Positions 31,331-55,149 of a DNA stretch of 64,000 bases are shown here, piece by piece. Position numbers and translations under genes: made by a program. How positions within the stretch are numbered: the stretch's first letter is position 1; every line of letters begins with the position of its first letter. The notes under the pieces are model-generated. The model saw only the letters and a list, made by a program, of their open reading frames with translations, searched no databases and was not told where the DNA came from. This DNA is from Bryoerythrophyllum caledonicum (lineage: Eukaryota > Streptophyta > Bryopsida > Pottiales > Pottiaceae), in NCBI GenBank assembly GCA_963971425.1, contig OZ020526.1:18567173-18631172 (forward strand), written 5' to 3'.

Positions 31331-31379
31331 CCCGGTCGAGATCTCTGATGATATTTAGGCTTCTTATCCGATCCACGAC

Positions 31380-31515: not shown

Positions 31516-31599
31516 CCAATGCTGATTTGACGATGACTAGAGGTAAATCAATTTACCCATTGCGACGAAGGCAACTACATGGCTGACATGTTGACTAAC

Positions 31600-35631: not shown

Positions 35632-35779
35632 GATTTATATTACAATAATTTTTCTTTCTGTACCCTTGATCAAGTCTGAGCCTAAAAGGACTAAAAATCT
35701 GCTAGGGTGCACTATGAACTAACCTCCAGGAATGTAGCCACTATCGCCCGCGCGCGAGGAAAGTTGGGCTGCGGGATGA

Positions 35780-36495
35780 TCATCCTGGACAGGAGACATC
35801 CGGGCAGGTGAACAGAGACACACGTTGAACTTTTCTTCTCTCTTCTAGTATTTTTTGGTTCGAACGCCACCTGCTTCTGCCCCGCAACGGCTTTGTCCCC
35901 GTCCTTCGCCTTCTCTCCGCCCTTTGCTTTTCTCCGTCTTTAGCCGTCTCTGCGGACTTGGCCCTTTCCATGGATTTGCTAGAAGTCCTTGTCTTCTTTG
36001 GTGGGGGGCCTTCGGCTGCTGAAGTCATTGAGGCCGGAGTTGCTGTGTTACTGGCCCCAACTTTAAAAACGAGTTTTGGAATTCGAGCCTGTTTAACAGG
36101 CGTCGCAGGTTTCTCTAATGGTAGCGCTCCCTCCACTCCTGCTGTCGTAGATGACGGAGTGGCGACGTTCAAAATTGCTGGACTTTGTTGACCAGGCGTC
36201 GGAGGCTCGCCGACAATAGCATCAATGTTAAGAGCTGGTTGTGGACGATTGAACGGCAATGTTGTTTGCGCTATAACTTCACGGGGGGTCGTGCTGTAAT
36301 TGAGACACATAAGTGTGATTGATCCGGAGCGGCGGTCGTGAAGTTTGTCTCGACTCTGGGTGGAAGGCGCCATGTCCTCAGCAGATACTCTTCTTCAACA
36401 GGCCCTAAACCACCAAAATGTGCGGCAGTCCGCGCGGGAGGGTCAACAATGAGCTCGGGTGGAGAATCATCATTTGTGTCGTACTCGTGGTCACT
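35780..36495 (-). pseudogene. proline- and lysine/arginine-rich tail region of the methyltransferase-like gene
   Basis: Two overlapping minus-strand frames carry acidic/proline-rich sequence (DTNDDSPPELIVDPPA) and then basic sequence (PPPKKTRTSSKSMERAKSAE). They continue after the third exon of the methyltransferase-like gene, but only with frameshifts near 36495 and 36330. I read this as a disordered, lysine-rich C-terminal extension of that gene, now frame-broken. Confidence 0.4.
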
Positions 36496-36742
36496 GACTG
36501 TCGGCATCGATTGCACCATCCATCTCACCAGGCCCCACAATTAGCTTGAGTTCACCTTCAACGCCAGTTTGAGCCGGCATTTCACGTGCAGAAAGACGTT
36601 TGCGAGCCGGAAAGAAGGCCATTCCATTAACGTGATTGTGCGCTTTTGCAACCTCAGCGTCCTCTCGAACAAACTCGATGACAATTGCTTTATGCCTCTG
36701 TAGGAAGATCAGAGACAGTCAGTCCAGCTCAAGTCATGTCCA

Positions 36743-36763
36743 CCGTCGGTGGGCAGTCGACGG
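36743..36763. repeat. intronic palindrome (family member)
   Basis: Imperfect palindrome with arms CCGTCG and CGACGG around a GTGGGCA centre. It starts 69 nt after the 5' splice site (36832, minus strand) of a 135-bp intron. Confidence 0.8.
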
Positions 36764-38169
36764 CATGGACCATCAAGAAATAAGAAATGCAAAGTAGGAA
36801 AATCAAGTGTAGATGGAGAGAAGAACGCATACCAATGCCACTGCAATGACGTTGCCACCGCCCCAGGTATTCAAAACGGTGAGAGGATCATTCTTCAAAA
36901 GTATTGGCGCTAAAAGTGACATCAACAAATCCATATTGGGATGGCAGTCATCACCCGACGAATTCTCTGTCGATGGCATGGAGGCGTCCGCATAGATTGG
37001 ATTCAGAAGGCCCTTTAGTCCCGTTACTATAAGAAACCTATTTAAGCGATCTACTGGACTATTAGGCTGGTTGAAAAGAATTCCGACGTGCACGATTGGA
37101 CATGCCTCCATGATTGATGGAGTGAAGCGATTTGTCGTATTCGGGATGTAGCGGATACTATGGACCGCGACGTCCGATTTCCTATCTTGGCATTTGCACT
37201 CCACCTGGAAGTTCGACTCATCATTTGTTATAAAAATGGAGGGAGCATATAATTCCTTGTCATCTCCCTCTCCACTCAGCACTCTGTCCACAACAGCCTT
37301 GACACCGGTCCGATTGGTCATAGTCGGCGCTCCGGAAGCCCAGAAGTCAAACACCACGAACGCCTCGCGCGCCTCTTTCTGGAGACTAAAGGCACATGCC
37401 ATGTCGATGGCCTTCACGACGTCTTCAAGAGTCTTCGCAACCTTGACGTCAAAGTAGACAATATACTCCTCCGCTGATTCACTGGAAATGGCGGTGAACT
37501 TCTTCAACGCCGCGTGGTACTCCGGGGGAGGTGGGTCTGTACTAGGAGTGATTCCGTTGTATCTCTGATAAAGATACTTCTTACCGCCCTCGCTTTGTAA
37601 CAGCTCCCGCTGGATGTTCTCGATCGTTTTGTCAGTGAGACCCCATTGGTCTGCAACCTCCTTGTAGTGCTCGTCCTTCCATGGCATAAAGTCGACTTGT
37701 CCGCGCTTAATAAGCGGGTGGTTGCGGAACTGGTGCATTAGCTCGTTCTTGACTATATAGTCCATTTTCTTATCTTGGCACCAAATTTTTAAGGAAATCC
37801 CTTTCGCAGTCTTCTCGCGCGACCCAATCACCTTCAAGAACACCTTGCAGTCCAGAATCTCTTGGGCTAGCTTCATGCATTCATGATTGCAAAGACCAAT
37901 AATGAATTGCAGGTCAGTGTGCGTGAGGTCTAGCTTTGGAGGCTTCAATATGGTCAGAGGTTTCTTCCCGTCCTCCCCAATGAGTTTGCCTTGATCTCAA
38001 CGATCGAAGACTTCGTGCCACTTGTTGTACAACTCGTCCGGAACATCAACGAGGGACAGATTCGAGGTCTTTGTGGCCTTATCCTTGGCCAAAATTGGAC
38101 TAAGGTAGTCCGTCACAAACTTTTGCACTATGGCAAAGAAGGCAACAATATGAGATTAGATCAACCGTC

Positions 38170-38186
38170 ATCGGCTGCCAGCCGAT
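38170..38186. repeat. intronic palindrome (family member, perfect arms)
   Basis: ATCGGCTGCCAGCCGAT, with perfect 8-bp arms around one base. It starts 74 nt after the 5' splice site (38260, minus strand) of a 133-bp intron. Confidence 0.9.
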
Positions 38187-38305
38187 ACATATAAGAAAAG
38201 ATCGGGTGTGGTGCAAAGATGCAAGCACACAAACAAGAGCATTGAAAATTGTGACCGTACCTTCCATCTCTTGGGCTCCGCTCTCCTGTCGATCCGACCT
38301 TGTTC

Positions 38306-38505
38306 NNNNNNNNNNNNNNNNNNNNNNNNNNNNNNNNNNNNNNNNNNNNNNNNNNNNNNNNNNNNNNNNNNNNNNNNNNNNNNNNNNNNNNNNNNNNNNN
38401 NNNNNNNNNNNNNNNNNNNNNNNNNNNNNNNNNNNNNNNNNNNNNNNNNNNNNNNNNNNNNNNNNNNNNNNNNNNNNNNNNNNNNNNNNNNNNNNNNNNN
38501 NNNNN
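38306..38505. other. assembly gap, 200 N
   Basis: Exactly 200 undetermined bases. The methyltransferase-like gene enters it from the left and the 3' end of the hAT gene borders it on the right, so adjacency across it is not proven. Confidence 0.99.
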
Positions 38506-40973
38506 AGTCTGATGGGGAATTGTCATCGTCGCGAACATTCCTGATATTGCCCCCCCTGTTTCAAGCTCTTCAAGGTTAGTCACATTTGGGATGTCGCTCT
38601 CTGAGGAAGTAGACAAAGGTTGCACTTCATGAATGCTCTCATTTTGAGGAAGATGAGGCGAAGGATTGCGACGAGGACTTTGATTCCAAGGTCCCCAACG
38701 ACCTTGAGCCAATTCTTCTTCCACATCGTCATCATCTCCGTAATACTTTCTCGTTTCCTCAAGATGATCGGCGCCTTCCGCCCAAAGATTAGGGTGTCCC
38801 CGGTACTCCAGCGGAGAGCGGGGAGCTGCCATATTGTGCTCCTCCTCTTCCTCACCTATCAACATATCAAATTCACGATTAGGTTCACCCACCGGGACCG
38901 GCCTAGGGCATCTGGGTTGGAATCCTCCGAGTGAATATTTGCATCGTACCATCGAATGGGATCGGCCCCTGGTCTTTGTTGAAGGCATCGGCTATTGGTA
39001 TAAATATACACCAATGACGCAGCCTTTTCTGCCGCTAATCGATTTTGGCTCTTGTTGTGGACAAACGAGTACATACTCCAGTTTCGTTCGCAAGAGCTAG
39101 CTGAACACGTAAGGGCTAGAATACGAACAACTATTTTAGACAATGCTTTGTCTGCGATTCTGGCCCACCATTGGTGAAGTTGAAGCTTTCACTGGCAGAT
39201 GTCAGATGCCTCGGTAGGGCCATATGGTCCTATGCCCTTCTCGTACTGTGTTAACTCATATTGGACGTTGTTGTATGAGACTTCCAATACCTCCATCATT
39301 TTGCGAACAACCCGATTCAATGCTCTTTGTGCCATTCCGTCAGCCCTAAGTGCCACATTATCCTTGAGGTACGGATTCAAAAGAGTCTTGGCGTAGTGAA
39401 CATCGGTAAAAACCATTTGCCACCGGGCATCAAAAGATTGCTCAAAAGTGGATGCTATATCAGCTCGTAGAGTAGAGGGTGACTCTCTCAAAGAGTACAC
39501 GTGTTCTCGCAAATTATGCATCACAAGCCACGCACGACCCATGGCTGGTTTGCGGCCATCAAACACACGCAATGCCTTCAAAACATCCCCAGTCATGTGC
39601 ACGTAATTCTGACATCGTTGCCAAAAGGCCACATCTTCGATGGTGAGCACCACATTACGCGCTGCGGTTGCTGCTTGCTCTCCATTCTGTTTATTTCGTC
39701 GTGCTGCAAAGTAGTTTACAACACGGGGGTGGTTTTTCAACTGCTCCAACACTCCTTTGAGTCTCACCAATCGATCCAACATAAGGAAATTACAAGCAAA
39801 GCGGGTTTCAGTGGGCACTACAATATGCAAGTTTGGACTCAACTCACGAAGTGTCCCCATTGTCGAATGGTGGTTTCTAATATATTTGCACAATTTCTTT
39901 GCCCTCTCTATTAAATCTTTAAATTCTTGGACCTTCGCCCAATCTTTCAACATGAGATCCAATGCATGTGCCATGCACCCCTGCTTGTGAATGTGCGGAT
40001 ATGTGAGAATAATATCATCCATCGCTCCAAGCATGTTGGGAGCATTGTCTGTACAAATCTGTGTCACATGGATGGAACCCACCTTCTCAATGTAAACTTT
40101 CACTTGGTCCGCTATGTAACGCATGGACTTCTTCTCACCACTGGTGTCTATGCTCCCCAAGAATACGTCACCAGTGGGGCACGACATCATTAAATTCATG
40201 AGGGGCCTTCGGTGGACATCATCCCATTCATCCGTGCATATCGACACCCCATAATTCTTGATTGCAAAACCAACTTTGGCTTCAATCTCTTTCTCAATTT
40301 GCAACCTCTTAGGTTCAATCAATCTAGTCCTCAACTGGTGATATGTAGGAGGAGTGTACTCAAACTTTGCCACGGATGTTGCCCTCACTGCATCGATGAA
40401 CGCCTGATTTCGCGCCACATTAAAAGGCACATTCGCCTGATAGAAAAAGGTCGCCCACTTCTCATCAAGTTCCTTCCTCTTTGCAATGTTCAAAGCATCA
40501 AGCATCCGTTGTTGATGTAGTTGCCTAGATCTAGTGGAATTCGAGGCGGTAAAACTACCCGACAAATGGTTGCGGTCGTTTCCTTCAGAGAGATTAGGCA
40601 CTCCTTCCCGAGGCCCACTTGTTACCCCACCCGCCACATTATTTAGAGCATCAGATTGGCTTGAAGTGTTAATAGTTGGTGCCCTTGATGGACCACTTGG
40701 ACCTGAATCTCCACCATACATGTCCCCGCCCATCATTTGTTGCGGAACAATGTTTCCACAATTAGCAAATCAACTTCGCACATAGGGAGGTAGGCTATGA
40801 CAAATCGACCTCTCTGACTTGGCGCCATATCCAAAGTGAAGGAACGCACGCTCACGTTTGTAGCTAAAAGTATAGTTGCAGAAAACACAATTCACTTTGC
40901 CCCCCTTGTCACCAAAATTGTACCAAGGTTCCCATTCTTTTGTTTGCTTCCTTTGACTTCCCATTGCATTCAC
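38506..40973 (-). pseudogene. hAT-superfamily transposase (BED + DUF659 + dimerisation domain)
   Basis: Minus strand, cut-and-paste transposase. A BED-type zinc finger is at 40770-40973 (CVFCNYTF, then FLHFGYG). The catalytic part is at 39189-40736: ICTDEWDDVHRRPLMNLMMS (first Asp), QICTDNAPNMLGA (second Asp), GCMAHALDLMLKDW. The C-terminal hAT dimerisation segment is at 38859-39143 (ALTCSASSCERNWSMYS). All three lie in one frame, separated only by TGA codons at 40770-40772 and 39189-39191. A frameshift near 38890 precedes an acidic tail (about 38575-38890). It is inactive as written. Terminal inverted repeats and an 8-bp duplication were not identified. Confidence 0.85.
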
Positions 40974-41159
40974 GGCTTATGCCCAATAATGTGCAAATCC
41001 CGTCTAAGCCAAAATACGGGGCTAGTTATAGTATAGAATCAGGTGAAAATATGAGGTCTGATAGCAGTGGTGCACTGCTTGAACCAATTTTTACATCACC
41101 TCAGCCGCACACCAGTGTCGCCTGCCACCCAAGTAGACTCGCAAGGAGCTCAAACTGAA

Positions 41160-41545
41160 TTGAGGTCCAAGGGATAGAGGCCAAGGTGACAAGCGTGAGG
41201 AGAAACGGCCCTCCCCGATCCTTTTATACACGAGCCAAGAACAAGTGTGACCTGACGCGCCAAGGGCGGGGACGTCTCCGTGAAGGGGCGTGGACGTCTC
41301 CCCAACCTAGGAGAAGGAGGCCTTTGAGGCATTTTGGGTGCTTAGGCACTCTTCCTCTCCATTAGAAGAGTGGAGGTTTTAATATAGGGTGCCTTATTTT
41401 TGGTTCCGACAAGATTGCGATGCACTTAAAATAAAAAGCAGATTATGTCTATAAAGGAAGGCTAAATGGAAAGTACTACTTTTGTACTTTGACAGCATGC
41501 TCTCCAAAAATGAAAACCTTTATTAGCTCCCTTTTAGATCTAGTA
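41160..41545. promoter_or_regulatory. 5' module of the hAT gene, shared with the 42.1 kb gene
   Basis: Upstream of the BED exon. It contains two GGGGACGTC-type GC-rich palindromic motifs (41264-41280, 41285-41303). From about 41315 to 41540 it is clearly homologous to 42957-43195 (shared phrases TTATTTTTGGTTCCGACAAG and GGAAGGCTAAATGGAAAGTA), which lies upstream of an unrelated ORF on the same strand. It may hold a promoter. Confidence 0.5.
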
Positions 41546-41547
41546 TA

Positions 41548-41975
41548 TAGCTTGTGAGCTATGCAAGTCCCCATCCATAACGGGGGATATAAGCCTCTAG
41601 TAGAATGTAACGTGCAAGTTCTCTAAATAAATAATTTAAACACAATTGCCCCACAAAAGATTAGGAATGTACCACATACCATTAAAGAAAAAAATAAATC
41701 AAGTGGTGAATAGCCTGTGAGCTATGCAAGTCCCCATCCATAACGGGGGATATAAGCCTCTAGCAGAATGTAACGTGCAAGTTCTCTAAATGAATAATTT
41801 AAACACAATTGCCCCACAAAATACTAGGAATGTACCACATACCATTAAAGAAAAAAATAAATCAAGTAGTGAATAGCTTGTGAGCTATGCAAGTCTCCAT
41901 CCAAAATGGGTAGTATAAGCCTCTAGTAGAATGTAATGTCCAAGTTCTCTAAATAAGTTGTACCATTACAAACAA
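41548..41975. repeat. 163-bp tandem repeat, about 2.6 copies
   Basis: TAGCTTGTGAGCTATGCAAG begins units at 41548, 41711 and 41874, an exact 163-bp period. The last copy is incomplete and more diverged. A remnant of the unit start is also seen near 43660. Confidence 0.95.
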
Positions 41976-42064
41976 AAAGGATATTTAAAATCATATAATG
42001 TTTAGAGAAAAAGTATTGTTCACAAAATTGATTTGCTACGTCCTAAACCTTTAAATACTCCTAG

Positions 42065-42721
42065 TCAGTAGTAACGTTGGTGAAGGGCTCGTTTGGTCCT
42101 CCTCAGCCTACCACGTGCTTGTGCCTTTTCGCTCGCGACTTGGACGTGGGTTTCGTCGGAGTCAGCATCTGAACTCGACGTGTCAGTATCGTAGCTAGGT
42201 GTGTCGTCCATCACAGTCATGAACTTGCGCAATCCACCTTCCGGATACTTGCGCCATCCCATTGGAATTATTCCATATACTGGGCGAGGAATTTTTACCT
42301 TCCCCGGCATCGGCTTCAAAGTGGACCAATCCACTCTCTTGCCCAACTTCACCTCCGCATGAACACCCCGTGCAATGAAGAGATTTACTTCGTTGCGTTT
42401 GACGAATGGAACGTCATACAACACTTGGTAAACTTCGATGCATCGGTTTTTAAACGCCTCGTCGACACAATGTTTCAAGTTTGCCTTGTGGAAGCGCCGG
42501 TGATAGTTGTGTCGCGCCTCTGGGAAAGCCTTGTCGATGTGGCACCACTCGATGTAGTTTGTGCAATCATCAAAACTCCATGGCTCCACTACGTCCTCCC
42601 AACCTCGAAAAGCCAACTTCTCGGGATTACGAAGAACGTGCAACCGCTTCCGATGGGCGTTCCCCGCTCGTGCACGGGTCTTGTCTCGCTCCTCCTTGGC
42701 CAATTGTCCGGGTGAAGACAT
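42065..42721 (-). CDS. unrecognised repeat-family ORF, copy 1
   Basis: ATG at 42719-42721, 218 residues, intact. It is about two-thirds identical to the N-terminal half of the 46.4 kb gene over RKRLHVLRNPEKLAFRGWED, WSFDDCTNYIEWCHIDKAFP and VHAEVKLGKRVDWSTLKP, and it ends in a basic tail. No known domain recognised. Compared with its paralogue it lacks the coiled-coil and RING parts, stopping just before the tandem repeat. The upstream 42850-43200 segment is shared with the hAT gene. It belongs to a repeated, probably mobile-element-borne family. Confidence 0.5.
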   Translation of the reverse strand: MSSPGQLAKEERDKTRARAGNAHRKRLHVLRNPEKLAFRGWEDVVEPWSFDDCTNYIEWCHIDKAFPEARHNYHRRFHKANLKHCVDEAFKNRCIEVYQVLYDVPFVKRNEVNLFIARGVHAEVKLGKRVDWSTLKPMPGKVKIPRPVYGIIPMGWRKYPEGGLRKFMTVMDDTPSYDTDTSSSDADSDETHVQVASEKAQARGRLRRTKRALHQRYY

Positions 42722-42849
42722 GGTGTGCACGTGTGAATGCAAAATTTTGGCGTGGATGGATGAATGAGACCTCGCACGACGCCAACATCCAGCTCAATGA
42801 AGAGATGGTGGATAGGAGTATGCGAGGCGGGGACAAATGAGGAGTCCCT

Positions 42850-43200
42850 CCATTAAAATAGTAATCCGGTAGGGGCGGAGACGTCCCCGCCCTGCCCGGG
42901 CAGGGGCGGGGATGTTTGCTTGCAACTTGGGGGGGGGGTTCGTCCCCACAAAACTCAAGGAGGCGTTTGAGGCCACTCTTGCTTGGCCGAAGCACTCCTC
43001 ATCTCCATGAGGTGGGTGCACAATTAAATATGGGGTGTATTATTTTTGGTTCCGACAAGATCCTAATGCACTTCAAATAACACGCAGATTATGTCTTTTC
43101 CTACTTCTAGGAAGGAAGGCTAAATGGAAAGTACAACTTTTGTACTTTGACGGCATCCTCTCCAATAAAGAACACCTTTATTAGCTCCCTATTAGTTTTG
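42850..43200. promoter_or_regulatory. 5' module of the 42.1 kb ORF, copy of the hAT 5' module
   Basis: Begins with GGGGCGGAGACGTCCCCGCC (42872 onward) and a poly-G tract. Its 42957-43195 part is homologous to 41315-41540. Both modules lie immediately 5' of minus-strand ORFs. Confidence 0.5.
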
Positions 43201-44095
43201 GAGCAAACATAAGAGTGTAGAAAATTATTTCCTTTCAAATTTTAAAAAAAATTCCTTGTCTTAAGTGGAAAATAACGCTTCAACTCAAGTCAAAGATTTT
43301 CACATATTGCCAAAAATAATACGGGCAAGGTACCAAAAACAAAAACGTCTTACCACATAAAACTTAGAGATTTTAACTTTTTATACTTTTGATTTTTTCC
43401 ACAACAATATGTGGTGTAGACCTTCATATTGACCGTTTGGATCATCAATCTAAAACATATCAAGTATCTAAAAACTAAAACGTTAATTGCCCATTTTTTA
43501 GCTTCCACTACTAGCATAGTTGACTTGAATAAGCTACACCCTTTTTCTACCTCTAACAATTGGTGTATAAGGAACTAACATCATCCTAAACTACCATTAG
43601 TAATGGATTTAGGCCTTATCTAGTGCAAAAATTTGATACCAAGTAGTAAATAGCATAGGAGCTATGCAAGCCTTTCAATCTGTGTGGTTAAAATTTATGA
43701 AATTTTGTGGGGATATTAACAAAGAAGTATTTATTGAGATCCTACGGTTAGATGTAGAAATAAAAAGGTTTTGTCTCCCTTCTTAGGCATTATACTATAG
43801 CTGAGAAGTTTTGAAATGTTTTTGGTGTAAAAATGCCTTGGTCCTTTGGGGATTAAAAATGTTTGGAGGTATAAAACTTGGTCCACACCATTTTTTTTAT
43901 ACAAACGCACAAATCCTTATGAGGCTTAAGTACATCCATAATCACACCACTATTATCAAGTAGAATATAGACACTACTATTCATATTTTTTTAGTATCCA
44001 TAATGTAGCACAAATATGGGAAAATACATTAAACGCTAAAAGATGAAGCATTGTAAGAAAAATGTCTCTTGGTACGGCAAAAACAAAAAATACAC
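43201..44095. other. AT-rich DNA, no gene seen
   Basis: Only short chance frames. A fragment of the 163-bp repeat start (GGAGCTATGCAAG) lies near 43660. Confidence 0.4.
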
Positions 44096-46382
44096 CTAGT
44101 CAATATTCATCGGGCTATTAGTAGTGCCACTCGCCCCTGCCTCGTTGTCGTGTGCCCCTACGTGCATATGTAGGTCTTCATCTGAGCCCAATACAAGTCT
44201 ACAAGACGTCGATCGTGTTCTCCTCGCTGGTCCATCTTCATCCAACACGGCCCTTAGGATTTGGGATTGCATGAGCTGATCGAGCGTTTGCCGTGTCCTT
44301 GGACTCTGCACATCGAGCAAGAAGTCCATTCCATCATTTCGGAAAATTTATTTCCACTCTGATTCCGATAATTGTCTTAGTTCTTGCGGGTTCGGTTGGT
44401 CAACGTCGTGAGAAATGCGATCCCCGTTGTCGTCGGTGATGCGAACTCCGTCAACAGCCCACAGCCATTGCTCCCCGTTCTCGTCCCAATGGCCATTAAA
44501 GCATTGGTAGAAGAAATTTTGTTTTCCTTGACCGTATTTGTCCTTTAACGGGATCAAATTCTTGCACACCCGGACAATCTGCTCCGGGTCCCTTTCCCAA
44601 CCCCACTCGTTTGAGAGGTGAATCTTATTCAACGAGTGCATCTTCAGTTTCCAGCTCCACACCAAATCCTTTCCCCACATATGTGATTGATCATGAGCGT
44701 TCGTCACATTGAACTCCCAATGCGGGGGCATGTATGGAACTAATCCAAAAAGTTCGTACAATCGCTCGTGAAAAGGGGCCTTGCACAATGAGCACCGCCG
44801 GCGTACAACCATCAAGCTAATCAAGCAAAATGGATGGTACAAGTGCTCACAAGTGCCTAGATGCATCCCACCTTCTGGACCAAATGGGTTTAGACAAATT
44901 GAGCAAGTCGTACCGTCGGATACGAAGCTCGAAGGTTGTGGCCACAATAACATGGGGTTGCCCCGATGATCGAGGGTGGATGAAACCTCCTTTTTGAAAT
45001 CCCATTTGTAACAGGACCAATCAATGGTTGTTTGCCCACCGGCGGTTTTCACCATCGCCATTTCATCCATCTTGAAAAGATCATCTACGAGGGCCCACGA
45101 CGTCAAACCAAACACCCTCTCCTGGTTGTTTTCGGTATAGTTGTTGTCGATTTTTTGGAATTCCGCCACCAATTGTCAGGACCGATCGACCGTGAAGACG
45201 CATGCCAACTTCCATTGATAGTAATGTTCTACCAACACATTCAAGCGACTTTATAGTCTTGAATTCTCTTCAAGCGACTTTATAGTCTTGAATTCTCTTC
45301 AAGCGCTTTAGCGAGGTCTTTGCCGCCGTCACCGGCCGCACCCTCTTCTTTGTTGACCATAGCTTTGTCTGCGTTGGTAGGGGCCTCATCAAACGACAAT
45401 GAATCGTCTTGGGTTGACACGTGTACAAGTCCTTCCTCCTCCCGTCGTGGATTCCGATCTTCTATGGTCATTGTACTAGCTTGTAGGGCAAGTCGAAGCT
45501 CCTCCATATGACGTCGTTGCTGGTCAATAACAATGTTTTTATCATTGACTTCAATGCTCAACTTGCGAACCTCATCGGCAATGACAATAGTTCTGTCGTC
45601 TTCCCTTCCAATTGGTTCAGCAAGGTTTGGATAGTGCTGGCAAAAATAACACCAGTAGAGGCTTCTAACGTTCGATCAACAACCACGGGGGATTGTACAT
45701 GAGCTAAAACTTTATTAACGGTATCGTTAACGACTACGTTAATCGTCTGTTCCGCCCTCCTTCGTTTGGTGCGCGCTTGTGTCCTTTGGCTCCTTGTGAT
45801 TGGAACGTGGGATCCATCAGAGTCTGTATCCGTGTTTGAGGGATCGGTCTCGTACGTGTCGACCTGTTCAGTCTTCGCCATCAATTTGCCCAATCCGCCT
45901 TCTGGATACCTCCGTGTCCCCATTGGAATCAATCCATTTGCCGGAGAAGGAACTTTTATGCTATCTTCCATGGCTTTCAAGGTGGACCAATCCACCCTCT
46001 TGCCCAACTTTACCTCCGCGTGGACACCTCGCGCAAGGAAGAGATTTACTTCATTGCGTTTGATATAAGGGATGTCGTACAAGACCTGGTATACTTCAAT
46101 GCGCCGATTCTTGAATGCCTCGTCGGTGCACTTCCATAAATTTGCCTTGTGAAAGCGTCGGTGATAATTGTGTCGCTCCTCCGGGAAAGCCTTCTCGACA
46201 TGGCACCACTCAATGAAGTTCGCGCAATCCTCGAAACTCCATGGCTCCGGAACTTCTTCCCAACCTTTAAAAGCCAATTTAACAGGATTCCGAAGCACAT
46301 GCAACCTCTTCCGTTGTTTGTTTCCCGATCGCATTCGACTCTTGTCTCCTTCTTCTTTATTCATTTTTACCAGCGTGGCCAT
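44096..46382 (-). pseudogene. composite gene: unknown domain + coiled coil + RING-H2 finger
   Basis: Minus strand, ATG at 46380-46382. Part 1 (46382-45558) is paralogous to the 42.1 kb ORF (NPVKLAFKGWEEVPEPWSFE, EERHNYHRRFHKANL). After a frameshift near 45590 a helical, probably coiled-coil segment follows (EVRKLSIEVNDKNIVIDQQR), to 45280. Part 3 (45172-44348) carries a RING-H2 finger: CSIC, then CEHLYHPFC, then CSLC. This is the zinc-binding arrangement of ubiquitin ligases. The same frame continues past one TAA (44348-44350) to 44096. A 29-bp tandem duplication (45242-45310) lies between the coil and the RING. A ubiquitin-ligase role is possible for the intact ancestor. Whether the parts formed one protein is an inference. 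Confidence 0.5.
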
Positions 46383-46560
46383 GGGTGGGAAAAATCTGAA
46401 TAATGTATGTGATGCGAATGGATGAAGTCCTCACACGACGCCCACAACCAACTCAATTAAGAGGTGGATGAAGAGGGAGTATGTGAGGCGGGGACAATTG
46501 GGGGTGTGCACGATATTATATAGCCGATAAACGAAGCACTGGTACAGGGTCCCCGGGCAG

Positions 46561-46578
46561 GGGCGGAGACGTCTTCGC
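46561..46578. promoter_or_regulatory. GC-rich GACGTC motif upstream of two divergent genes
   Basis: GGGCGGAGACGTCTTCGC lies between the RING composite gene (minus) and the kinase-like gene (plus), after CCCCGGGCAG. It resembles the motifs at 41.27, 42.87 and 48.8 kb. Confidence 0.5.
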
Positions 46579-46791
46579 AAAAAAACCCTAAACCACATAA
46601 ATAGGGGACTTTTGTCCTTATTCTCTGCCAAGTCCATTCCCTAGGCCTCACGTGTCAGTTTGCTTTGCGGCCTGAAAGTGAGTTTGGTGGGTAGTCGGGC
46701 TTGGCCCATTTATTGCATCCAGACTCTTTGAGGTTTTTTTTAAAACCATCAACTTGGAATTTCGACCACGGTAGGGAGTTGACTCTCACAT

Positions 46792-48372
46792 ATGGCGGGA
46801 GAAGGAAGTAGGTCGATGGAGAAGCGCCCCCAATTTATGGATTTGGATGATGTTGGTGAGACGGTGCTTCCGTCCACCAACATGGAGTTGACTTCGGGAT
46901 CATTGAATCGGTTGTCGTCGAGCCGGAAGAGGCGGAAGAAGACACCAAATCCGGACATGCCCCCGCACGAATACATGGTTGAATGTAGAGGGATTGCCGT
47001 CGAATTTTACAACCGCCGAACGAGATAGGCATTGATGAGGAGCTATTTGAACCACAACAAAGAGGGATACCACAAGTTGACTGTTGACATGCGACACGAA
47101 TTAATGTCAAACCTTGATAAATATGAGAAATTGAATAATTTCTCAGATTATTGGTTGCATTCGGAGTAGTTGGACACACAAGTGACCGCACTGACCACCA
47201 ATATCGTTGCGAACTAGTGTTACGTCACGGGGAAGAAGGAGGATGGAAGCGACTGGAACCTGGAGGAGCACGCACTAGTGGCGAAGATGAGGATGATCCA
47301 CGGCTTCGTTCAACAGTACTCTTCATCCCGTAAGAAGAAACTAGCTCCTTGGAAAGCGACTATTGAGGAGCAAATTTTGGCTCACTACGTTGGTGGAACT
47401 TTCAAGTGGCTTGAAAGTTGCGCTAAGGTGATTCCAATGCCAGGTCAGAAAGCGGTGGGTGGCTATGGGGCTGTACGGAAGGTGATGATAACCAAATTGG
47501 AAAACATTCCAAGTTGGATTTACTTCGCCGGAAAGACTTTGACCAACACCAACGAGAAGGAGAAGCGCCGAGACATCATCAACGAGGCTGGAGGGTGTCT
47601 GATAGTCCATCCAAGGATCATTAGACTTGCGTACATCCACCCGAAAAGTATGGAAGGGTACACGCTCTGGTGGAATGGGGGATCTCTGGCTTCTTTTTGG
47701 TCCAAGTTTGACTCGAAAGTGGACGAAGCATTGCCGTTTGAACCGATTGAGATGCATCCGAATACCGGGCTGTCGATTCAAGAGCTTTGGTGGATAAAAA
47801 CTTACCGCCAGAATCGAGTGAACCTCGCGCTATCGTTGTTTGTCATTGTGGGGAAATGCCTCGACGCGAAATATATACACAATGACATCTCTCCATCAAA
47901 TGTTTTGCTCCACTTTGATGAGTGGAAACCCGATACGGTGTACATCAGAATTTGCGATTGGGGGCTTTCTAGTCGGGTTGTGGAGAATGAGCTATCAAGG
48001 TATGGTTATCAATTCAAGGAGGAGCTTCAGCAAGAGAGAGAGCGGCGACGGTTTGTGGCACCAGAACTATTCTATGTTTTTGGGCCGCGGGACTCCACCA
48101 ACTTGCTTGAAGTCATGCAACGGTCACACCTCTACTTCAAGGCAGCAGATGCATTTGCGATGGGTTGGATTTGTGAAAAAATTTGGAAAGAAGATTGGGA
48201 CACTTCGTATTTCACCACCAAAAACACGGAGCAATATGTAAATTTGAAGCTAAAATTTACAGCGTTGCAAAAACAAGTGCTCGAAGAACGGTCTTCTGTG
48301 CCAGATGTTTTAAACACATTAATGAAACCCCCCTACAATTGGACTATGCCTCTATGTTGTTACCGACAATAA
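46792..48372 (+). pseudogene. protein-kinase-like gene interrupted by three TAG codons
   Basis: ATG at 46792, then a single frame to 48372 broken only by TAG at 47026-47028, 47167-47169 and 47215-47217. The last open part (47278-48372) contains a complete kinase domain. Numbered from 47278, it has a Gly-rich loop GGYGAV (61-66), Lys86 in FAGK, Glu103, H201-N202-D203 with N208 (HNDISPSNVLL), D227-W-G229 replacing DFG, and VAPELF. HND and DWG are unusual, but the key K, E, D, N and D residues are present. The N-terminus carries an RKRRKK basic cluster. It diverges from the RING composite gene and is followed at 48.8 kb by the same GACGTC palindromes, suggesting both sit in one repeat-borne module. 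Not recognised as a known plant kinase subfamily. Confidence 0.6.
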
Positions 48373-48948
48373 TTTTTTGTTAATTAGCTCCATTAGTTTC
48401 GCATGTGGTGGTTAAGTAGGCAATACGGCATCTTCGTAGAAGAATATGTGTACTTGGCAATTGCCATACGTCTTATTTAATCAATACAGGATACGTCCAA
48501 ATCTTAAATTTTCAGTCCGAGATTTGCATTTGTTCAAGCACAAATAATTATTGATACACTATTGATACACTAAATGTGCACAAGTGAAAGAAATAATTTT
48601 ATTATTTTTACCAAAATTGATACATAGTGTAATAAATGGCATTTAATATCCGGTTATGTCACTACACTAAGTGCCTCATTTGCAATTGGTGTATGGGTTC
48701 ACATTTAGTGTATACTACACTAAACATAAATTTTAGTTTACCAACATACTATAACTTTAAACACTATTAACTAACTCATGAAGGGGCGGGGACATCTCTG
48801 CCCTGCCCGGGTGGGGCGGAGACGTCTCCGCCCCACCTCCTTCTTGGCATTAGTCCCCGCTCCTACTCAAACATGACCCTGTCCTACGTGGCAGCGATGT
48901 GGTGCCAACATGGCTACCACGTCGCCTATTTTTTACCTAGCGGGTAAG
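48373..48948. other. AT-rich flank ending in GC-rich palindromes
   Basis: 48373-48780 shows no gene. At 48783-48802 and 48813-48834 are GC-rich palindromes; the second is a perfect 22-bp palindrome centred on GACGTC. Confidence 0.6.
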
Positions 48949-50314
48949 TCAACCCTCAGTTGATTGTATCGAATGGGCGAGAGCTCTACCGGACAGGCGA
49001 ATCGGACGTTCGTTCAATATGACAACCCTGCTTTGGGCCCCTATCCGTCTATGTAGACAACCCAGACTGGACCACACAAGGATGACATCGTAGTTGAGAA
49101 AATAACTTGCTCGGGCCGAACTAGGTTCCTCCTCCTTCCCAAGATGCTGACATGCAGCAAACGTGTGTTGCCCACCAATTATGTACCAGTGGCACATTGG
49201 TGACTCCCATCATTTCCAATTCTTCCCATCGTACGTGACCTCACTGTCGAGTGGTTTGATAGTGGAGAGCACGAGGTCCATCCTATACAATGGAGCACCA
49301 GTGATTGGATCTGGCGTACCTGGTTTTCCCCGCAGGGGAATGCAGTAAAGCTCGAGTATTTTGCGCCAAGGGCCCAGTACCTTGTAGAATAGAACGAGCT
49401 CTTCTGTGCGCCTTGGAATCATCTCTCGATACTTCATTGAAGGAGGAGCAATGTGGATTTTTTCCTCGGGGATCTTCTTCCAAAGCGCTTGCTACCCGAA
49501 TGGATAGCATTGGTTGAGCCCTTCTTCGAGCGTCTTGTACATTTGGTCCAGCTCATTATCCTTTGTCTTCATGGACAACTGGTTGACGAACGTGAGCACT
49601 TCGGCGACTGGTTTAATCTTTGAATCCTTCTTCGACGCTCGCTTCTTGGGCACTTGAAACAAAGACTCTCCCATTTCCGGAGTCCCGGAGACATCAATGC
49701 TAACAATGCCGCTCGCTGACATCTTCGCCTTCGACTTCCTCTTCGGAGTTGGCTTTCCGACAAACAACTTCGCGTTCTCCAAGTTCTTGTTGTCCCTTGC
49801 TTGAATGAAGTAGAACATCATGTCCTCTTTGTTCTCCGGAGTTCCCGCGGCGAAGTGCATGCCCTTATTGTTTGCATCATGGCAGAGCTTGTGCAGACAA
49901 AGTATTACTGGGAGGCGGACCGCAACAATGTCAAGACTTTCATCCGTCATGTTCCCCTTCACTACAATGAGGAGTCTGATGAAGAAATCTTCATGAGGGT
50001 CTTCCTTCATGTCGAGCACTGTCACCAAGTTCCCTCCAATCATGGTGTTGTTGTCGATTCTTGTTATTATTCCAAACTCAATAGCTAGGGCCTTTCTTAG
50101 AGAAAGGCCCCATGCCGTAATGGACTAGGCTCCCTCGAACGTGATGCGGGGCTAAATATCATCGGGCCACCCCATCATTATCAACAACATTGCCACAGAT
50201 CCACTTGATGAGCCGAGGGACTTTGGGTGATGCGGGGCTAAATATCATCGGGCCACCCCATCATTATCAACAACATTGCCACAGATCCACTTGATGAGCC
50301 GAGGGACTTTGGCA
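48949..50314 (-). pseudogene. relic with ParB-like IIGGQHT motif
   Basis: Minus strand, single frame from an acceptor at 50315 to 48949. It is interrupted by TAG (49492-49494), TGA (49210-49212) and at least one stop within an 86-bp tandem duplication (50142-50313). Readable segments include IGGNLVTVLDMKEDPHEDFF, KRKSKAKMS, EKIHIAPPSMKYREMIPRRT and CHWYIIGGQHTFAACQHLG. The last resembles the GGHHR/GGQHR signature of ParB-like N-terminal domains, which bind or cleave nucleic acid or nucleotides. Such domains often precede DNA methyltransferases, which may connect it to the 36.5-38.3 kb gene. Function is inferred from one motif. Confidence 0.4.
50142..50313. repeat. 86-bp tandem duplication
   Basis: TGATGCGGGGCTAAATATCA at 50142 is repeated at 50228, and both units run to CCGAGGGACTTTGG. 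The copies are identical as far as I can read, so the event is recent. It lies inside the ParB-like relic. Confidence 0.95.
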
Positions 50315-50383
50315 CTGCAACAAAGCACAACAGAGGTTACAAATAATGTATTTGAGAACAATGGATCAATGAGTAATCAAAGT

Positions 50384-50666
50384 CATCGGTTGGCAGCCGA
50401 TGATCCACTTCAACTTGCTCGAATGAATATCAGTGTCATTTCGACCTCATCTGCAGAACTATCAGAACCCATGAAAACCCCAAGAGAATCAGTGCAAATT
50501 CAGCAACGAACTCTTTCTTCCAGGTTCGGCGGCTGGCAGCCAACACAACAAATGTGCTTGTGTTTCATCGGCTGCCAGCCGATGAAATACCAAACACCGC
50601 CGGGAAAGCAAAACAATGAACGCTAACAAAAACAAAAATTCATAATCATGTCGGCTGCCCGCCGAC
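50384..50666. repeat. cluster of four GC-rich palindromes
   Basis: Members are at 50384-50402 (CATCGGTTGGCAGCCGATG), about 50528-50544, 50566-50584 (CATCGGCTGCCAGCCGATG, perfect) and 50650-50666 (GTCGGCTGCCCGCCGAC). Half-site variants follow near 50700-50775. The cluster is upstream of the ParB-like relic on its strand. Confidence 0.85.
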
Positions 50667-52580
50667 GGTGTTTAGAGAACATACCTGATATGTGCCATTT
50701 TGTCGGCTGGTGGAGTGTGAACGTCGGCTGGTGACTCTTACTCCACCCGTCAGATAGGCGCTAATGTCCGTCGGCAGGCGAAGAACAATTTGTCGCACCC
50801 TAGACCAAATGAAGCCCTAATTCTCGCACTTAACTAACCTGAGCAAGGTTTTAGGAAAAGTGAGAACACAAATGAGCCAAAATTGGAGGGCACCTCGGCT
50901 TTTATGCTTGGATCAAGGGTAACGTCGCAACCGTTTGATCTATCATCCTAGGCTAACCAAGGGCCACGACCAACCTAGTGGGTACTCAAGTATTTTTCAT
51001 GTGACATGCAATGGGGCATGGGACATGGGTCATGTGGCAGGACATCTGGAAGTGATTTTTTGGATAATCTCATTGCACGTCCACTGATTCGCGTCCAATT
51101 TTTGAAAACTCTATACAATGAGCTGCATGGCTTGAATCGAGCTTCAATTATGGTGGACAATTTCGAGTTTGAATTTCTCGCGCTCTGATGGGTTGGGCAT
51201 GTGGGTAGATTCCATAGCTCAGTGATTCTTCCGTCATTTCTGGACGTTTGTTTATCCTCTTCAATCCGTCTGCCCTCTCATAGTTGTCAGTTGCATTTAT
51301 TCTTAACTACTTTTTACTAGAGTGTTTGGTTCCCTCTTATTCAGCAGGGCTTCAGTACTCGTGTTGATACTACAATCTTACATTTCTATTCCATTACAAG
51401 TGGAGTATTTTTTTAGGTCTTTGAATCTCATGCTTGTCAATTGCGTTGATCCGTCTATTCCAGCATAAGTGTATTACTTTCATAGGTCGTGCAATCTCAC
51501 GCTTTGCATCTGCACTTATTCTTCAGAAGCTCCTTGAGTACAGAATTGCCACAGATCCTGCCAGATTTTTTCGATTTCAGCAATTTTGCACGAGTCACAA
51601 TATTTTTTGTCCACCGACTAATCCTTTATGGCTCAAGTGAATCTCTGATCGACCCTGCCACTTCTAATCTTCATCCTGAATCTCGTCGGCGGATGCTTTT
51701 AATCTGTCGGCGGGTGCCAAATACGTTCATCCGGGCCATCGGTGTTCTGTGGAAACTCAGCCGTCAGCTGGCAGCCAACGACACGGATCATCGTGGCATC
51801 TTTTCCATAAAACTAGCGCAATTTGGTATTAGAGTTTGAGCAGACGACCCTTTCATCAGCTAAAAAGATTTCAATCAACAGTCGTCGGCTGGCAGCCGAC
51901 AAAATCAAAGTTGCTATTATATCTTTCGATATAGTATCAATAATCCCTCCGCAGTCGCTGCGACGGATCTTGAACCCATTCATTCCTTCATCAAGAATGG
52001 ACGGTCAAGTCGTTGAAGGGTGTGCAAAGGTGTTGTTGTTGCTCTCACCCACTCCGACCTCTACTTTGTTGGTCGAGCTATCATTGATAGAATCATCCTC
52101 AGAGATCCTTTGATGGTTCGATTGAAAGTTATAGAAGTGTCTGTTGCAATGGAGATGCCGATTCCATTCCCAACGAAAGATGTAACAATGTTGTAGGATT
52201 GTCTTGGCTGTTCAATCTCATGGGAAGTTGCTGACCTCAGGCCTTATGCCGAGGTTGATGAACTCAATGACGAACTACTAGAGACCACGGCATTGCATGT
52301 GGAGGACATCAAGCCGGTACAAAAATTTCTCAATTTACGCGATGGCATGGAGGTCGCACTCCTTGATTATACCAAGAAGTCAGAGACGTTGTGCACGAGT
52401 CGGGGTCATCGACGAGTGTAGGCCAAAGGAAACCTTGGGAGGGTTTTCTGATTCCACACATCTTCTTCCTCATCGTCAGAGTTTAGTCAGTGAATCCGAA
52501 GATCGTAAACCATCCCGCGTATTGCGAGATACCACAGATCAATGTGCTCGGAAATTCTGTTGGTCACCTAGTTCTCTGGA
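50667..52580. other. repeat-borne DNA with palindromes, exons not resolved
   Basis: Palindromes at 51762-51780 and 51884-51900 (GTCGGCTGGCAGCCGAC, the cleanest copy). Open stretches such as one near 52240-52420 look protein-like but have no recognisable motif. They could be 5' exons of the DUF7869 gene. Confidence 0.3.
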
Positions 52581-52609
52581 GTGGCTATCGGGTTCATCTG
52601 CTACCATCT

Positions 52610-55045
52610 CCTACTGGATCTTAAGATGCAAATCAAGATGATTGCAAGGTCAGTGTCAAATCTGAAGCGTCTGATGACGACGACCGTAATGATCGAGTGT
52701 ATGATGATTTGGCTAACCAATGGAGTTCTAGTACTTTGGATAGGTCCGACTCTGAACCCGAAATTGGCTTTCGAGAAGGAGGTTGGAGCTCGTTGGCTGG
52801 CCGCCGACGAAAGAGAAGCCTTCACGATGATGATCTTAATGCTGCGATAAGAGAATCTGGTGGTTCTGAGTCATACCCGGATTGACCATTGTGGAGAAAC
52901 AAGTATTGTCTTTTCTTCAATGGCAACTTCGCGAGTATTAAGCGAGCAATGATCCAAGTGTGTTTGCCGCATGAAGCGTGCAACATAGATATTCTTGGGG
53001 ACATCGATGTTGGGGTCCTCTTTGTGTCAGAGGACAACGATCTCCAAATGACCACAATGCGCTCGTTGCTAACGCACACGCGCCTTGAAGGCGGTCCACT
53101 TCTTTCTGATTGCGTTTCATACTGTTCGGAGAATAATCAAGCGCCTAGTGAGGATGGCGGGCTTGATGAAGTTCCAAAGGATCGATATCGAGGTGTTTGC
53201 CGAAAAATTATTTTTAAGGACGATGTGTCCGTCTTGAAGTTCTAGCACCTACAAGATCCTCTGCAATGTCGGATCGTTAATTCAAAAGGTTGTTGTAAGA
53301 GGAGATGTTGCCAATTGTATCCTTAGGAGGACACCCGTAAGATCCGACAGATGTTCTATGCCTCTAGCTTTGAACGACTTCGTCAGATGGCGTATGCTGT
53401 TTAGGACCAACTTCACCTTGTTCCTAGATTCACAAAGAGCTACATCACCTCTTGGGAATCGATGTCTGTGAAGTTGCATGGTACCTCATTCACGGAGTGT
53501 CAAGGTCCGCATACCACAACTACAAAGCGGATTCTAAGATCAGTCGCGTGAATGGCTGCCACGGTAACGCAGGCACTGTGCGCCCGAGGCCTCAAACAAT
53601 TCAGGCACGAGGGACAATCTCCAGCATTATCAACGATAGTGCAGATCAAATGCCAAATGAGTTTTGTGCAATCGGAAACAAGAGGGTAGCTGCATTGAAG
53701 GTGCTTCATGTGGCATTGAATTGGAATCATCTACGGGACATGGCCAACTTTGTAAGTTCTATTTTTCACTATCTTTGTTTTACCGAGCACACACTCAATT
53801 TCCGCTTTTTGGAGTTTATCCGCCGTCGGCAGGCCGCCGACAAATCTAGGATCCGTTGGGTCATTGGCTGGCAGCCGACAACATGGTCATTTGCTAGTAC
53901 TGGATGCATATTGACACTGTTCCTTTCTGGTTAATGGAGAATGCAAGGCCACTCTGATTTCGCAATCTAAGATCAGTCGGATGAAAAAACGCTTCTTCAA
54001 GAATGTCAAGGTGAAGGCAGTGGGAAGCAACTTCTCAAGGTGCACGGAGTGTGACTTCCTTGTTAAATTCATTGCAAAATATATGCGCGGTTCTAACAAG
54101 TGGCAAGCACTTACAGATGAGAGGAACCGCCACCTCAACTATCAAAGGGCGTGCAGAAATGTGTATGTTGGATGGGTTGCTCAATCCATTCAGTACCCAT
54201 CAGAGTTCCTTTGTATAATTCACAATAAGATGGATACCTCAAAGACGGCCATTCCAAGAATGCAAAGGATTACTAAGGCCACCGCAAGGCTAGGGCAAAT
54301 ATCGATCTCATGTACATGGATGCTAAACCATGGCCATGGCGATGGTGCCTACATTCATTACTCAACATTGTTGTGGCCTGGGGACTCGAATGTCGCCATA
54401 TCCTCAATCTGTCGTGTTTTGCGAGCGCTAGAGAGATGCCCAGTTAGAGAGTCAAAGGAGCTTTTTACCACTCCGCCGCAGAATCATTTTTTGAAGCACT
54501 TTTTTATGGCAAGTCCAGATGCAACTCTTCAATTCCGGAATCAGAGGGAGACATAAATCAACATGCTCTACCGGGAAGATCGAAAGTTCTGCTTCCACGG
54601 AAATTATTTCTCCAGCTTGATAACTCCGCCAAGGACAACAAGAAGCGATTTCTTATGGCATTTTGCTCGTTACTCACAGCGAGGAGAATTTTCAAGGAGA
54701 TCACTGTGGGATTTTTAATTGTCGGTCATACTCATGAAGACATTGATGCACATTTTAGTTACCTTTCAAAACTCATCAAGCAGAAGAATACCTATTGTTT
54801 GGCTCACCAAATGAAGGCATTCATGGACTCACAGAAGACCGTCGCCTTCATTCTTGAACTTGTGCAAGAGGTTGTTGATTTTAAGAGTTTCATTGCTATC
54901 TACCATCACAATGGCAAGAACAAAATTGTGGGACTTGGCAAGATGTACCTCTTCAAGATTTACGTTGAGGAAGAAGGTGAAGACGTTGGATGGCCTGTGA
55001 TAAAATACAAGAAAAGTGCGACTGATTCATCTTGGCTTCCTCCGG
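52610..55045 (+). pseudogene. DUF7869-family transposase-like gene
   Basis: Plus strand. From about 53280: GCCKRRCCQLYP, then VCEVAWYLIHGVSRSAYHNY, HGNAGTVRPRPQTIQARGTI, SADQMPNEF. A 146-bp intron follows (53752-53897, GTAAGT to CTAG). Next is a segment from about 53970 with CTECD, VAQSIQYP and IIHNKMDTSKT. After a frameshift near 54535 come LQLDNSAKDNKKRFLMAFCS and VGFLIVGHTHEDIDAHFSYL. The reading ends at WLPPG and a GTAAGT donor at 55046. These are hallmarks of DUF7869 proteins, multicopy in plants, algae and animals. The conserved D/D/(H)xED acidic residues suggest an RNase-H-like transposase; that is inference. One GC-rich palindrome also occurs at 52791-52810. Confidence 0.7.
53825..53879. 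repeat. two intronic palindromes in the DUF7869 gene
   Basis: GTCGGCAGGCCGCCGAC (53825-53841) and ATTGGCTGGCAGCCGAC (53863-53879) both lie in the 146-bp intron 53752-53897. The first starts 73 nt after the 5' splice site. Confidence 0.85.
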
Positions 55046-55121
55046 GTAAGTTAGTCAGTCTCCTGTCATTAACTCATTTATGCATCCTACTAGGTATTCC
55101 TCATGCATGTCACTAGTCCTT

Positions 55122-55140
55122 TGTCGGCTGCTCGCCAATA
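55122..55140. repeat. intronic palindrome after the last read exon of the DUF7869 gene
   Basis: TGTCGGCTGCTCGCCAATA, a degenerate member starting 76 nt after the GTAAGT donor at 55046. Confidence 0.7.
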
Positions 55141-55149
55141 GAACTCACT

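What the first reader, a model, noticed from the sequence alone, without database searches (positions are those of the whole stretch)
36743..55140. A family of GC-rich palindromes placed about 70 nt inside introns
At least fifteen palindromes of the GTCGGCTGGCAGCCGAC type occur: 27551, 28504, 35561, 36743, 38170, 50384, 50528, 50566, 50650, 51762, 51884, 52791, 53825, 53863, 55122. Arms vary together (GTCGGC/GCCGAC, ATCGGC/GCCGAT), which keeps pairing. In the four introns whose 5' splice site I can place, the palindrome starts 74, 69, 73 and 76 nt downstream. Three of these introns are 133, 135 and 146 bp long. The rest of each intron is not similar, and the host genes are unrelated. The hairpin might aid splicing, mark introner-like elements, or be a protein-binding site. 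I know of no described family like this.
Basis: partly seen in the sequence, partly recalled or inferred. Interest (0 to 1): 0.88.

Follow-up and report, generated by a model that had tools for sequence, protein, structure and literature searches.

The report
Palindromic sites studding a giant transposon
The GC-rich palindromes are not features of ordinary plant introns: they are conserved DNA sites spread through a large multi-gene jumping element, probably docking sites for a protein that helps the element escape silencing or move.

Summary
The palindromes are real: 16 window sites match at least 14 of 17 positions, 0.3 expected. The "unrelated host genes" are pieces of one broken DNA transposon (about 26987-55148). 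Relatives are typically 16.7 kb, with terminal inverted repeats, a 4-bp target duplication in 9 of 10 elements read, a DUF7869 gene, an unknown gene and four NIF-like frames. One reference copy carries about 22 sites, no gap over 1.44 kb. A 330-bp miniature keeps the same ends and one site near each end (11 of 11 copies). All 50 exact T-type sites followed up, of 611, lie in the element or its miniature. Between two subfamilies the site core is 90% identical, flanks 55%. The inner base pair is T..A in one subfamily and G..C in the other; genome-wide T..A 611, G..C 481, mixed 308, A..T only 4, so bases, not just pairing, matter. This resembles the motifs bound by VANC proteins in Arabidopsis VANDAL transposons. 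I infer binding sites for an element-encoded dimeric protein, possibly anti-silencing; no binder is identified. The "70 nt" spacing is inheritance within one family, not a splicing rule.

The parts
26987..55148 (-). Broken copy of the large transposon (genes reversed relative to the reference copy L040/L041), with later insertions (about 29.1-31.0 kb and about 38.3-49.1 kb)
   Evidence: blastn to reference copies; the outside tandem repeat is contiguous across it: L057 5131-5468 matches 26649-26986 and L057 5465-5657 matches 55149-55341
26988..27008 (+). Terminal inverted repeat of the element, CAGATATTTAACTAAATGTGG (same variant as in L055)
   Evidence: pattern search with 2 mismatches, 0.02 expected; L055
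26983..26986 (.). TGTA, likely 4-bp target duplication (partner 55149-55152, also TGTA); the right terminal repeat itself is missing
   Evidence: letters checked; alignment overlap; 4-bp duplications in 9 of 10 copies with both ends
27550..27566 (.). palindromic site beyond the last NIF-like frame
27748..27764 (.). palindromic site just after the last NIF-like frame
   Evidence: partner of E2 17455
28505..28521 (.). palindromic site upstream of a NIF-like exon
   Evidence: partner of E2 16684
35561..35577 (.). palindromic site in intron 35517-35723 (minus strand), 146 nt from the 5' and 44 nt from the 3' splice site
36745..36761 (.). palindromic site in intron 36698-36832 (minus strand)
   Evidence: (partner of E2 12026)
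38170..38186 (.). palindromic site in intron 38128-38260 (minus strand)
   Evidence: (partner of E2 10586)
50385..50401 (.). palindromic site, 5' part of the unknown-protein gene
50528..50544 (.). palindromic site, 5' part of the unknown-protein gene
   Evidence: one of two candidate partners of E2 8860 and 9155
50567..50583 (.). palindromic site, 5' part of the unknown-protein gene
   Evidence: one of two candidate partners of E2 8860 and 9155
50650..50666 (.). palindromic site
   Evidence: partner of E2 9034
50702..50733 (+). two half-sites GTCGGCTGGTG, 21 bp apart
51685..51717 (+). two half-sites GTCGGCGGRTGC, 21 bp apart
51763..51779 (.). palindromic site upstream of the DUF7869 frames
51884..51900 (.). 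palindromic site upstream of the DUF7869 frames
   Evidence: partner of E2 7496
52792..52808 (.). palindromic site inside a coding frame
   Evidence: partner of E2 6628, which also pairs with EII 5248
53825..53841 (.). palindromic site in intron 53752-53897
   Evidence: (partner of E2 5611)
53863..53879 (.). second palindromic site in the same intron
55123..55139 (.). palindromic site in the intron that begins at 55046
   Evidence: (partner of E2 4339)
51974..55045 (+). decayed DUF7869 gene (candidate transposase)
   Evidence: Pfam PF25273 E=2.3e-32 for the frame 54448-55116; stops and frame changes; blastn to L040
36833..38127 (-). exon of the element's unknown-protein gene
   Evidence: frame 36834-37996 is 42-48% identical to two frames of L041; no Pfam match, no NCBIfam match, no PDB match better than E=0.78
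34975..35373 (-). NIF-like phosphatase frame of the element
   Evidence: PF03031 E=1e-8
28078..28446 (-). NIF-like phosphatase frame of the element (weak match)
   Evidence: PF03031 E=0.0043, below the curated cut-off; nucleotide match to the L041 NIF frame

Best explanation
Shown: the palindromes are sites of one family of large DNA transposons (typically 16.7 kb, terminal inverted repeats, 4-bp target duplication), spread along the whole reference element with no gap over 1.44 kb, found in introns, outside recognisable frames and now and then in a coding frame, and kept while the surrounding noncoding sequence turned over. Inferred: each palindrome is a two-fold symmetric DNA binding site (half-site about GTCGGC[T/G]GS) for a protein that acts as a dimer and is most likely encoded by the element itself. 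The protein coats the element from end to end; the likeliest use is to keep it free of host silencing, as VANC proteins do for VANDAL transposons, possibly together with marking the ends for transposition, since the 330-bp miniature copies keep one site near each end. When a subfamily's protein changed its preference (inner base T or G), its sites followed.
For: 50 of 50 exact T-type sites followed up lie in the element or its miniature; of all 133 sites scoring 14 or more in those 20 loci, 129 do, 3 are near and 1 is elsewhere. Terminal repeats and exact 4-bp duplications in 9 of 10 elements read at both ends; the window also holds the empty site of element 1, a single CTAA where the element has TTAA twice. 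Miniatures: 11 of 11 copies have both sites; 5 of them were picked by terminal repeat alone and all 10 of their sites score at least 15. Selection: 12 core positions per site agree in 76 of 84 cases between E2 and EII against 251 of 454 in flanks within 40 bp (Fisher 6e-11), and in 81 of 96 against 292 of 511 for the window copy (1e-7). Homologous place: 8 of 10 bracketed sites in EII, 11 of 16 in the window. Switch: inner pair T..A in 18 of 19 and G..C in 21 of 24 intron sites of the two groups, groups separated by one branch, 100/100. Base preference: A..T only 4 sites genome-wide against 611 and 481. Evenness: P=0.0016. Orientation-free: in sense orientation the centre is mostly G at 10 and mostly C at 13 of 23 site positions.
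Against: No binding protein; no binding, methylation or expression data. No frame scanned showed a recognised DNA-binding domain above its cut-off (a zinc-finger model at E=0.065 in the DUF7869 frame is below cut-off). VANC targets are tandem repeats of a 9-mer; here single palindromes are dispersed. At least two E2 sites lie in coding frames. The second subfamily's sites are not uniform: of 13 in EII, 7 are G..C, 3 G..A, 1 T..A, 1 C..C, 1 T..C. In a plain MAFFT alignment of the DUF7869 introns the between-group figures are weaker: palindrome 66-75% (5') and 68-70% (3', columns one base off) against 32-57% and 39-47% in flanks and 74% in the exon. Symmetric excess also fits a hairpin or cruciform. 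A host factor could read the sites. The tree is unrooted, so the direction of the switch is unknown.
Confidence: 0.6

Rival explanations
1. Transposase binding sites only: the palindromes are recognised by the transposase (as subterminal repeats of Spm or Ac, recalled) to assemble the transposition complex; interior ones are by-products or help bring together the ends of a 16.7-kb element.
For: Miniature elements keep the ends and two sites. In the one G-type element whose end was found (L055) and in the window the terminal repeat differs too; the ends of EII were not found.
Against: About 22 sites run through the whole interior with no gap over 1.44 kb, and the interior ones are the ones shown to be conserved; known subterminal repeats are confined to the ends (recalled).
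Confidence: 0.22
2. RNA hairpins: the palindromes fold in the pre-mRNA of the element's genes and aid splicing or protect the transcript.
For: The five introns that could be placed hold six of the sites; symmetric forms are in excess for inner and outer pairs; in sense orientation outer G..T (18) exceeds A..C (6) among 103 sites.
Against: An A..T inner pair would fold as well but occurs in 4 sites against 611 and 481; sites also lie in a 330-bp miniature; the loop centre is G or C at different sites in sense orientation; counted by site position the wobble excess shrinks to 9 against 5, and left C>T against right G>A is 11 to 8; distance to splice sites is not fixed.
Confidence: 0.06
3. Host-protein sites or chromatin boundary marks used by the element (for example an origin, insulator or transcription-factor site of the plant).
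For: GCCGAC is the core of plant DRE elements and TGTCGG of auxin-response elements (recalled, not tested).
Against: All 50 followed exact sites belong to the transposon family; a subfamily-wide base switch is hard to explain with a fixed host protein; the outer base varies G/A, which would spoil those host motifs.
Confidence: 0.08
4. The palindromes are themselves tiny mobile elements (like the palindromes of Volvox organelle genomes) or introners.
For: Dispersed, short, often in introns.
Against: They sit at homologous positions in diverged copies (8 of 10 and 11 of 16 bracketed), so they are inherited; none of 50 exact sites followed lies outside the transposon family.
Confidence: 0.02

Closest known systems
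VANDAL21/VANDAL6 transposons of Arabidopsis with VANC anti-silencing proteins (PMC5735166, PMC10398659)
   Same: Short specific motifs in introns, gaps between genes and terminal noncoding regions along the whole transposon; subfamilies differ in one motif base (C-type and T-type); motifs diverge together within a family
   Different: VANDALs are Mutator-like (recalled) with degenerate terminal repeats (PMC10398659) and VANC targets often form tandem repeats of a 9-mer; here a DUF7869 transposon with clear terminal repeats, 4-bp duplication and dispersed 17-bp palindromes; no VANC-like protein was recognised
Subterminal transposase-binding repeats of Spm/En and Ac (recalled)
   Same: Repeated short motifs in a plant DNA transposon
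   Different: Those are clustered near the ends; here the interior is covered
Short palindromic repeats of Volvox carteri (PMC2670323)
   Same: Short palindromes in introns and spacers
   Different: Volvox repeats average 50 nt, mostly have TTTA/TAAA loops, live in organelles and were judged inert in the nucleus; here 17 bp, GC-rich, nuclear and tied to one transposon family
Introner elements (recalled)
   Same: Repeated sequence inside introns
   Different: The introns here are ordinary introns of transposon genes; only the 17-mer is shared and it also occurs outside introns

Membership tests
Class II DNA transposon | Terminal inverted repeats at both ends of a repeated unit | tested here: met
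   10 paired elements of 14.8-20.4 kb (picked from the first 100 of 340 listed ends), same repeat at both ends
Class II DNA transposon | Fixed-size target site duplication | tested here: met
   exact 4 bp in 9 of 10, read by eye; the tenth fits 5 bp; empty site of element 1 in the window
Class II DNA transposon | Encodes a DDE-type transposase | tested here: inconclusive
   DUF7869 gene in many copies but no PDB relative and catalysis untested
MITE derived from this element | Short and sharing terminal repeats with the large element | tested here: met
   about 330 bp, 11 copies in 9 loci
VANDAL/VANC system | Element-specific short motif repeated in noncoding regions along the element | tested here: met
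   a few sites are in coding frames
VANDAL/VANC system | Motif differs between related subfamilies and changes together | tested here: met
   not total in EII
VANDAL/VANC system | Motifs often arranged as tandem repeats | tested here: not met
   dispersed single sites, some pairs 30-250 bp apart
VANDAL/VANC system | Encodes a VANC protein and a Mutator-like transposase | tested here: not met
   frames scanned match DUF7869 and NIF only; no DUF1985, DUF287 or Mutator-type hit; short frames were not scanned
VANDAL/VANC system | Protein binding causes loss of DNA methylation | not testable with these tools
   no methylation or expression data
Introner elements | The repeat is a whole intron | tested here: not met
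   flanks of the window sites are not similar; copies also outside introns

The most novel reading that the evidence does not exclude
An independently evolved, sequence-specific self-protection system of an undescribed group of giant plant transposons: the element encodes a dimeric DNA-binding protein that coats it through some twenty spread-out palindromes, and subfamilies split by a one-base switch carried through most of their sites, making each protein blind to the other's elements.
Probability: 0.36. Interest if true: 0.86.

Novelty: new variant of a known kind. Interest (0 to 1): 0.72.

Why it matters
Anti-silencing by transposons is worked out in few systems (recalled), and whether it arose more than once is open. 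Here a transposon with other proteins shows the same kind of cis signature (distributed, mostly noncoding, subfamily-specific motifs) in a cleaner form: one 17-bp palindrome, about 22 sites, one diagnostic base pair. That makes the binder findable and the switch in specificity directly testable. It also shows that 'palindromes in introns of unrelated genes' can be an unrecognised transposon.

Tried and rejected
RNA family search of the window: no match at gathering scores. tRNA search: none. Scan of IMG/VR for the palindrome: 33 stretches, each with one exact copy (two stretches are of one contig) and no cluster, treated as chance. Giant-virus origin of the genes: no relative of two window proteins in IMG/VR. 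Volvox-type palindromes rejected on sequence, size and location. Plant transcription-factor sites considered from recall only. A fixed distance to the 5' splice site was dropped after the intron 35517-35723. My first impression from 50 listed T-type and 50 listed G-type sites that the outer pair varies independently (29/5/16 and 21/1/28) was not borne out by the whole T-type count (428/74/109; expected 381/27/203); the whole G-type count was not split. The figures (core 88% and 93%, flanks 40% between groups) rest on sites located by score, which favours the core, and leave out 1 and 4 of 25 copies without a site; I therefore lead, where partners were located by alignment alone. The count of C-type palindromes did not complete.

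Literature: searches. The 17-mers GTCGGCTGGCAGCCGAC and GTCGGCGGGCCGCCGAC are in no paper of the held library; the 13-mer CGGCTGGCAGCCG is in two whose titles are unrelated (listing only); CGGATATTTAAC is in two yeast papers (listing only); DUF7869 is in none. Read: PMC5735166 (abstract, outline, part 1 of section 5, sections 9 and 10), PMC10398659 (passages), PMC2670323 (passages). All other papers: search listings only.
Full report
Observation. The palindromes are there. Against RTCGGCTGSCAGCCGAY the window has 16 places with 14 or more matches, with 0.30 expected, all between 27.5 and 55.2 kb. The window is probably plant nuclear DNA: one frame carries AP2 and B3 domains, the make-up of plant RAV proteins (recalled). 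Within the 16 copies pairing is little better than shuffled (65 of 500 as high; covariation score 23 of 500), and the inner pair is broken in 7 of 16.

What the surroundings are. Once the genome search answered, the window proved to lie in a 437-Mb assembly with 611 exact copies of the pattern and none of its reversed control. The first 50 sites, all on contig 1, fall mostly in clusters. Twenty loci covering them show that the large clusters are copies, about 95% alike, of one large repeat, and that pairs about 205 bp apart belong to a short repeat. The ends of the large repeat are inverted repeats AACGGATATTTAACTAAATATGGACAAA; a pattern search with one mismatch finds 340 such ends, those of the short repeat included. 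Ten paired elements, picked from the first 100 listed ends, were read at both ends: the flanks show an exact 4-bp duplication in nine (ACAT, AATA, GTTA, ATAT, TTAC, CTAC, TTTG, TTAA, CAAT; my reading); the tenth fits 5 bp. Lengths are 14.8-20.4 kb, six of ten 16.67-16.74 kb. The window itself holds the empty site of element 1: the same outside repeat with a single CTAA at 29189-29192. This is a DNA transposon. Genes: a DUF7869 protein (PF25273, E=8e-44), a protein without any match, four NIF-like phosphatase frames (PF03031, E=3.9e-11 to 1.5e-5, all above the curated cut-off), and some frames without a match. The DUF7869 exon has 108 matches among 107 scored candidates; the first look gave 3803.

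The window's genes are the same set, in reverse order and broken: DUF7869 at 52-55 kb, the unknown protein at 36.8-38.1 kb with front parts at 49.1-50.7 kb, and NIF-like pieces at 28, 31-32 and 35 kb. A terminal repeat sits at 26988. A tandem repeat outside the element stops there and resumes at 55149, with TGTA on both sides; the right end of the element, including its terminal repeat, is missing.

Sites in the element. The reference copy E2 (L040+L041) has 23 places scoring 14 or more, 22 if one in a later insertion is left out; the longest gap, ends included, is 1440 bp (P=0.0016 against uniform placing). One of them (E2 14060, score 14) has no partner in E1's list and may be chance. In the window six sites lie in five introns that I could place and one in a frame; in E2 6628 and 15662 lie in open frames; the others are outside recognised exons or could not be placed, so 'mostly noncoding' is a judgement. 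A miniature of about 330 bp has the same ends and one site near each end in 11 of 11 copies; five of the copies had been chosen by terminal repeat alone.

Selection. E2 and a member of a second subfamily (EII, L098+L099) are 61-70% alike where they align. Of 10 E2 sites bracketed by alignment, 8 have a site at the homologous place; the other 13 were not bracketed. Against the window copy 11 of 16 bracketed sites have a partner, two of them sharing a pair of candidates. Twelve core positions agree in 76 of 84 cases for EII and 81 of 96 for the window, while flanks within 40 bp agree in 251 of 454 and 292 of 511. For the two introns around the DUF7869 exon in 24 genomic copies plus the window, a site of 14 or more is found in 24 of 25 and 21 of 25; between groups the core is 88% and 93% identical and ungapped flanks 40% (sites located by score, which favours the core). 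A plain alignment of the same stretches gives weaker contrasts: 5' palindrome 66% (75% without the inner positions) against flanks 32% and 57%; 3' palindrome 70% (columns one base off, copies without a site included) against 47% and 39%; exon 74%. The palindrome has been held while the introns around it changed.

Switch. One subfamily has TCGGCTGSCAGCCGA, the other TCGGCGGSCCGCCGA. In the two introns the inner pair is T..A in 18 of 19 sites of the first group and G..C in 21 of 24 of the second; the groups, named by motif, are separated by one branch of the exon tree with full support, 0 of 500 shuffles as low. Genome-wide there are 611 T..A, 481 G..C, 308 mixed and only 4 A..T sites. A structure that needed only pairing would allow A..T, so the bases themselves are read. 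The switch is strong but not total: of 13 EII sites 7 are G..C, 3 G..A, 1 T..A, 1 C..C and 1 T..C. The terminal repeat also differs in L055 and the window; EII's ends were not found.

Reading. A symmetric DNA site, free in orientation (centre mostly G at 10 and mostly C at 13 of 23 positions), repeated through the whole length, held while its surroundings change and switched in concert, is what one expects of binding sites for an element-encoded dimer. The closest described case is VANC21, which binds YAGTATTAY in introns, gaps and terminal regions of VANDAL21 and strips its methylation; [quoted passage not shown] The element here is not a VANDAL: other proteins, clear terminal repeats, no tandem motif arrays. 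'Works like' is inferred; 'is a' fails. The transposase-only reading is the main rival: it explains the miniatures well but not the cover of the interior. RNA hairpins fit the introns but not the miniatures, the free centre base or the near absence of A..T; a wobble excess of 18 to 6 over 103 sites is 9 to 5 by site position.

Limits. No binder, no methylation or expression data, one genome of which about 220 kb was read, copies that are not independent, a motif-based choice of loci for the first 20, and splice sites placed by eye.

Noticed in passing
window 20635-25366 and 59271-64000: The AP2+B3 gene region is present twice in inverted orientation, 99.7% identical over 4.7 kb and running off the window end: a very recent duplication or an assembly artefact.
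   Followed up: no
G000 contig C1 (65 Mb of 437 Mb): About 61 of the 108 listed DUF7869 exon matches lie on C1 (hand count), far more than its 15% share of the genome; it may be a sex chromosome or a repeat-rich one.
   Followed up: no
L045:106-2727 (minus): A second, distant DUF7869 gene: one open frame of 873 aa, 31% identical to the element's protein.
   Followed up: partly
window 39192-40769: A DUF659 (hAT-like, recalled) transposase frame inserted inside the broken element.
   Followed up: no
window 50141-50312: A perfect 86-bp tandem duplication.
   Followed up: no
window 50702/50723 and 51685/51706: Two pairs of single half-sites in direct orientation, both 21 bp apart, i.e. about two helical turns.
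   Followed up: partly
L041 3679-7944: Four NIF-like phosphatase frames in a row carried by one transposon, an odd cargo.
   Followed up: no
window 26.2-27.0 kb and 55.15-55.34 kb; L057 5087-5657: A tandem repeat of about 180-190 bp units into which the broken element was inserted.
   Followed up: partly
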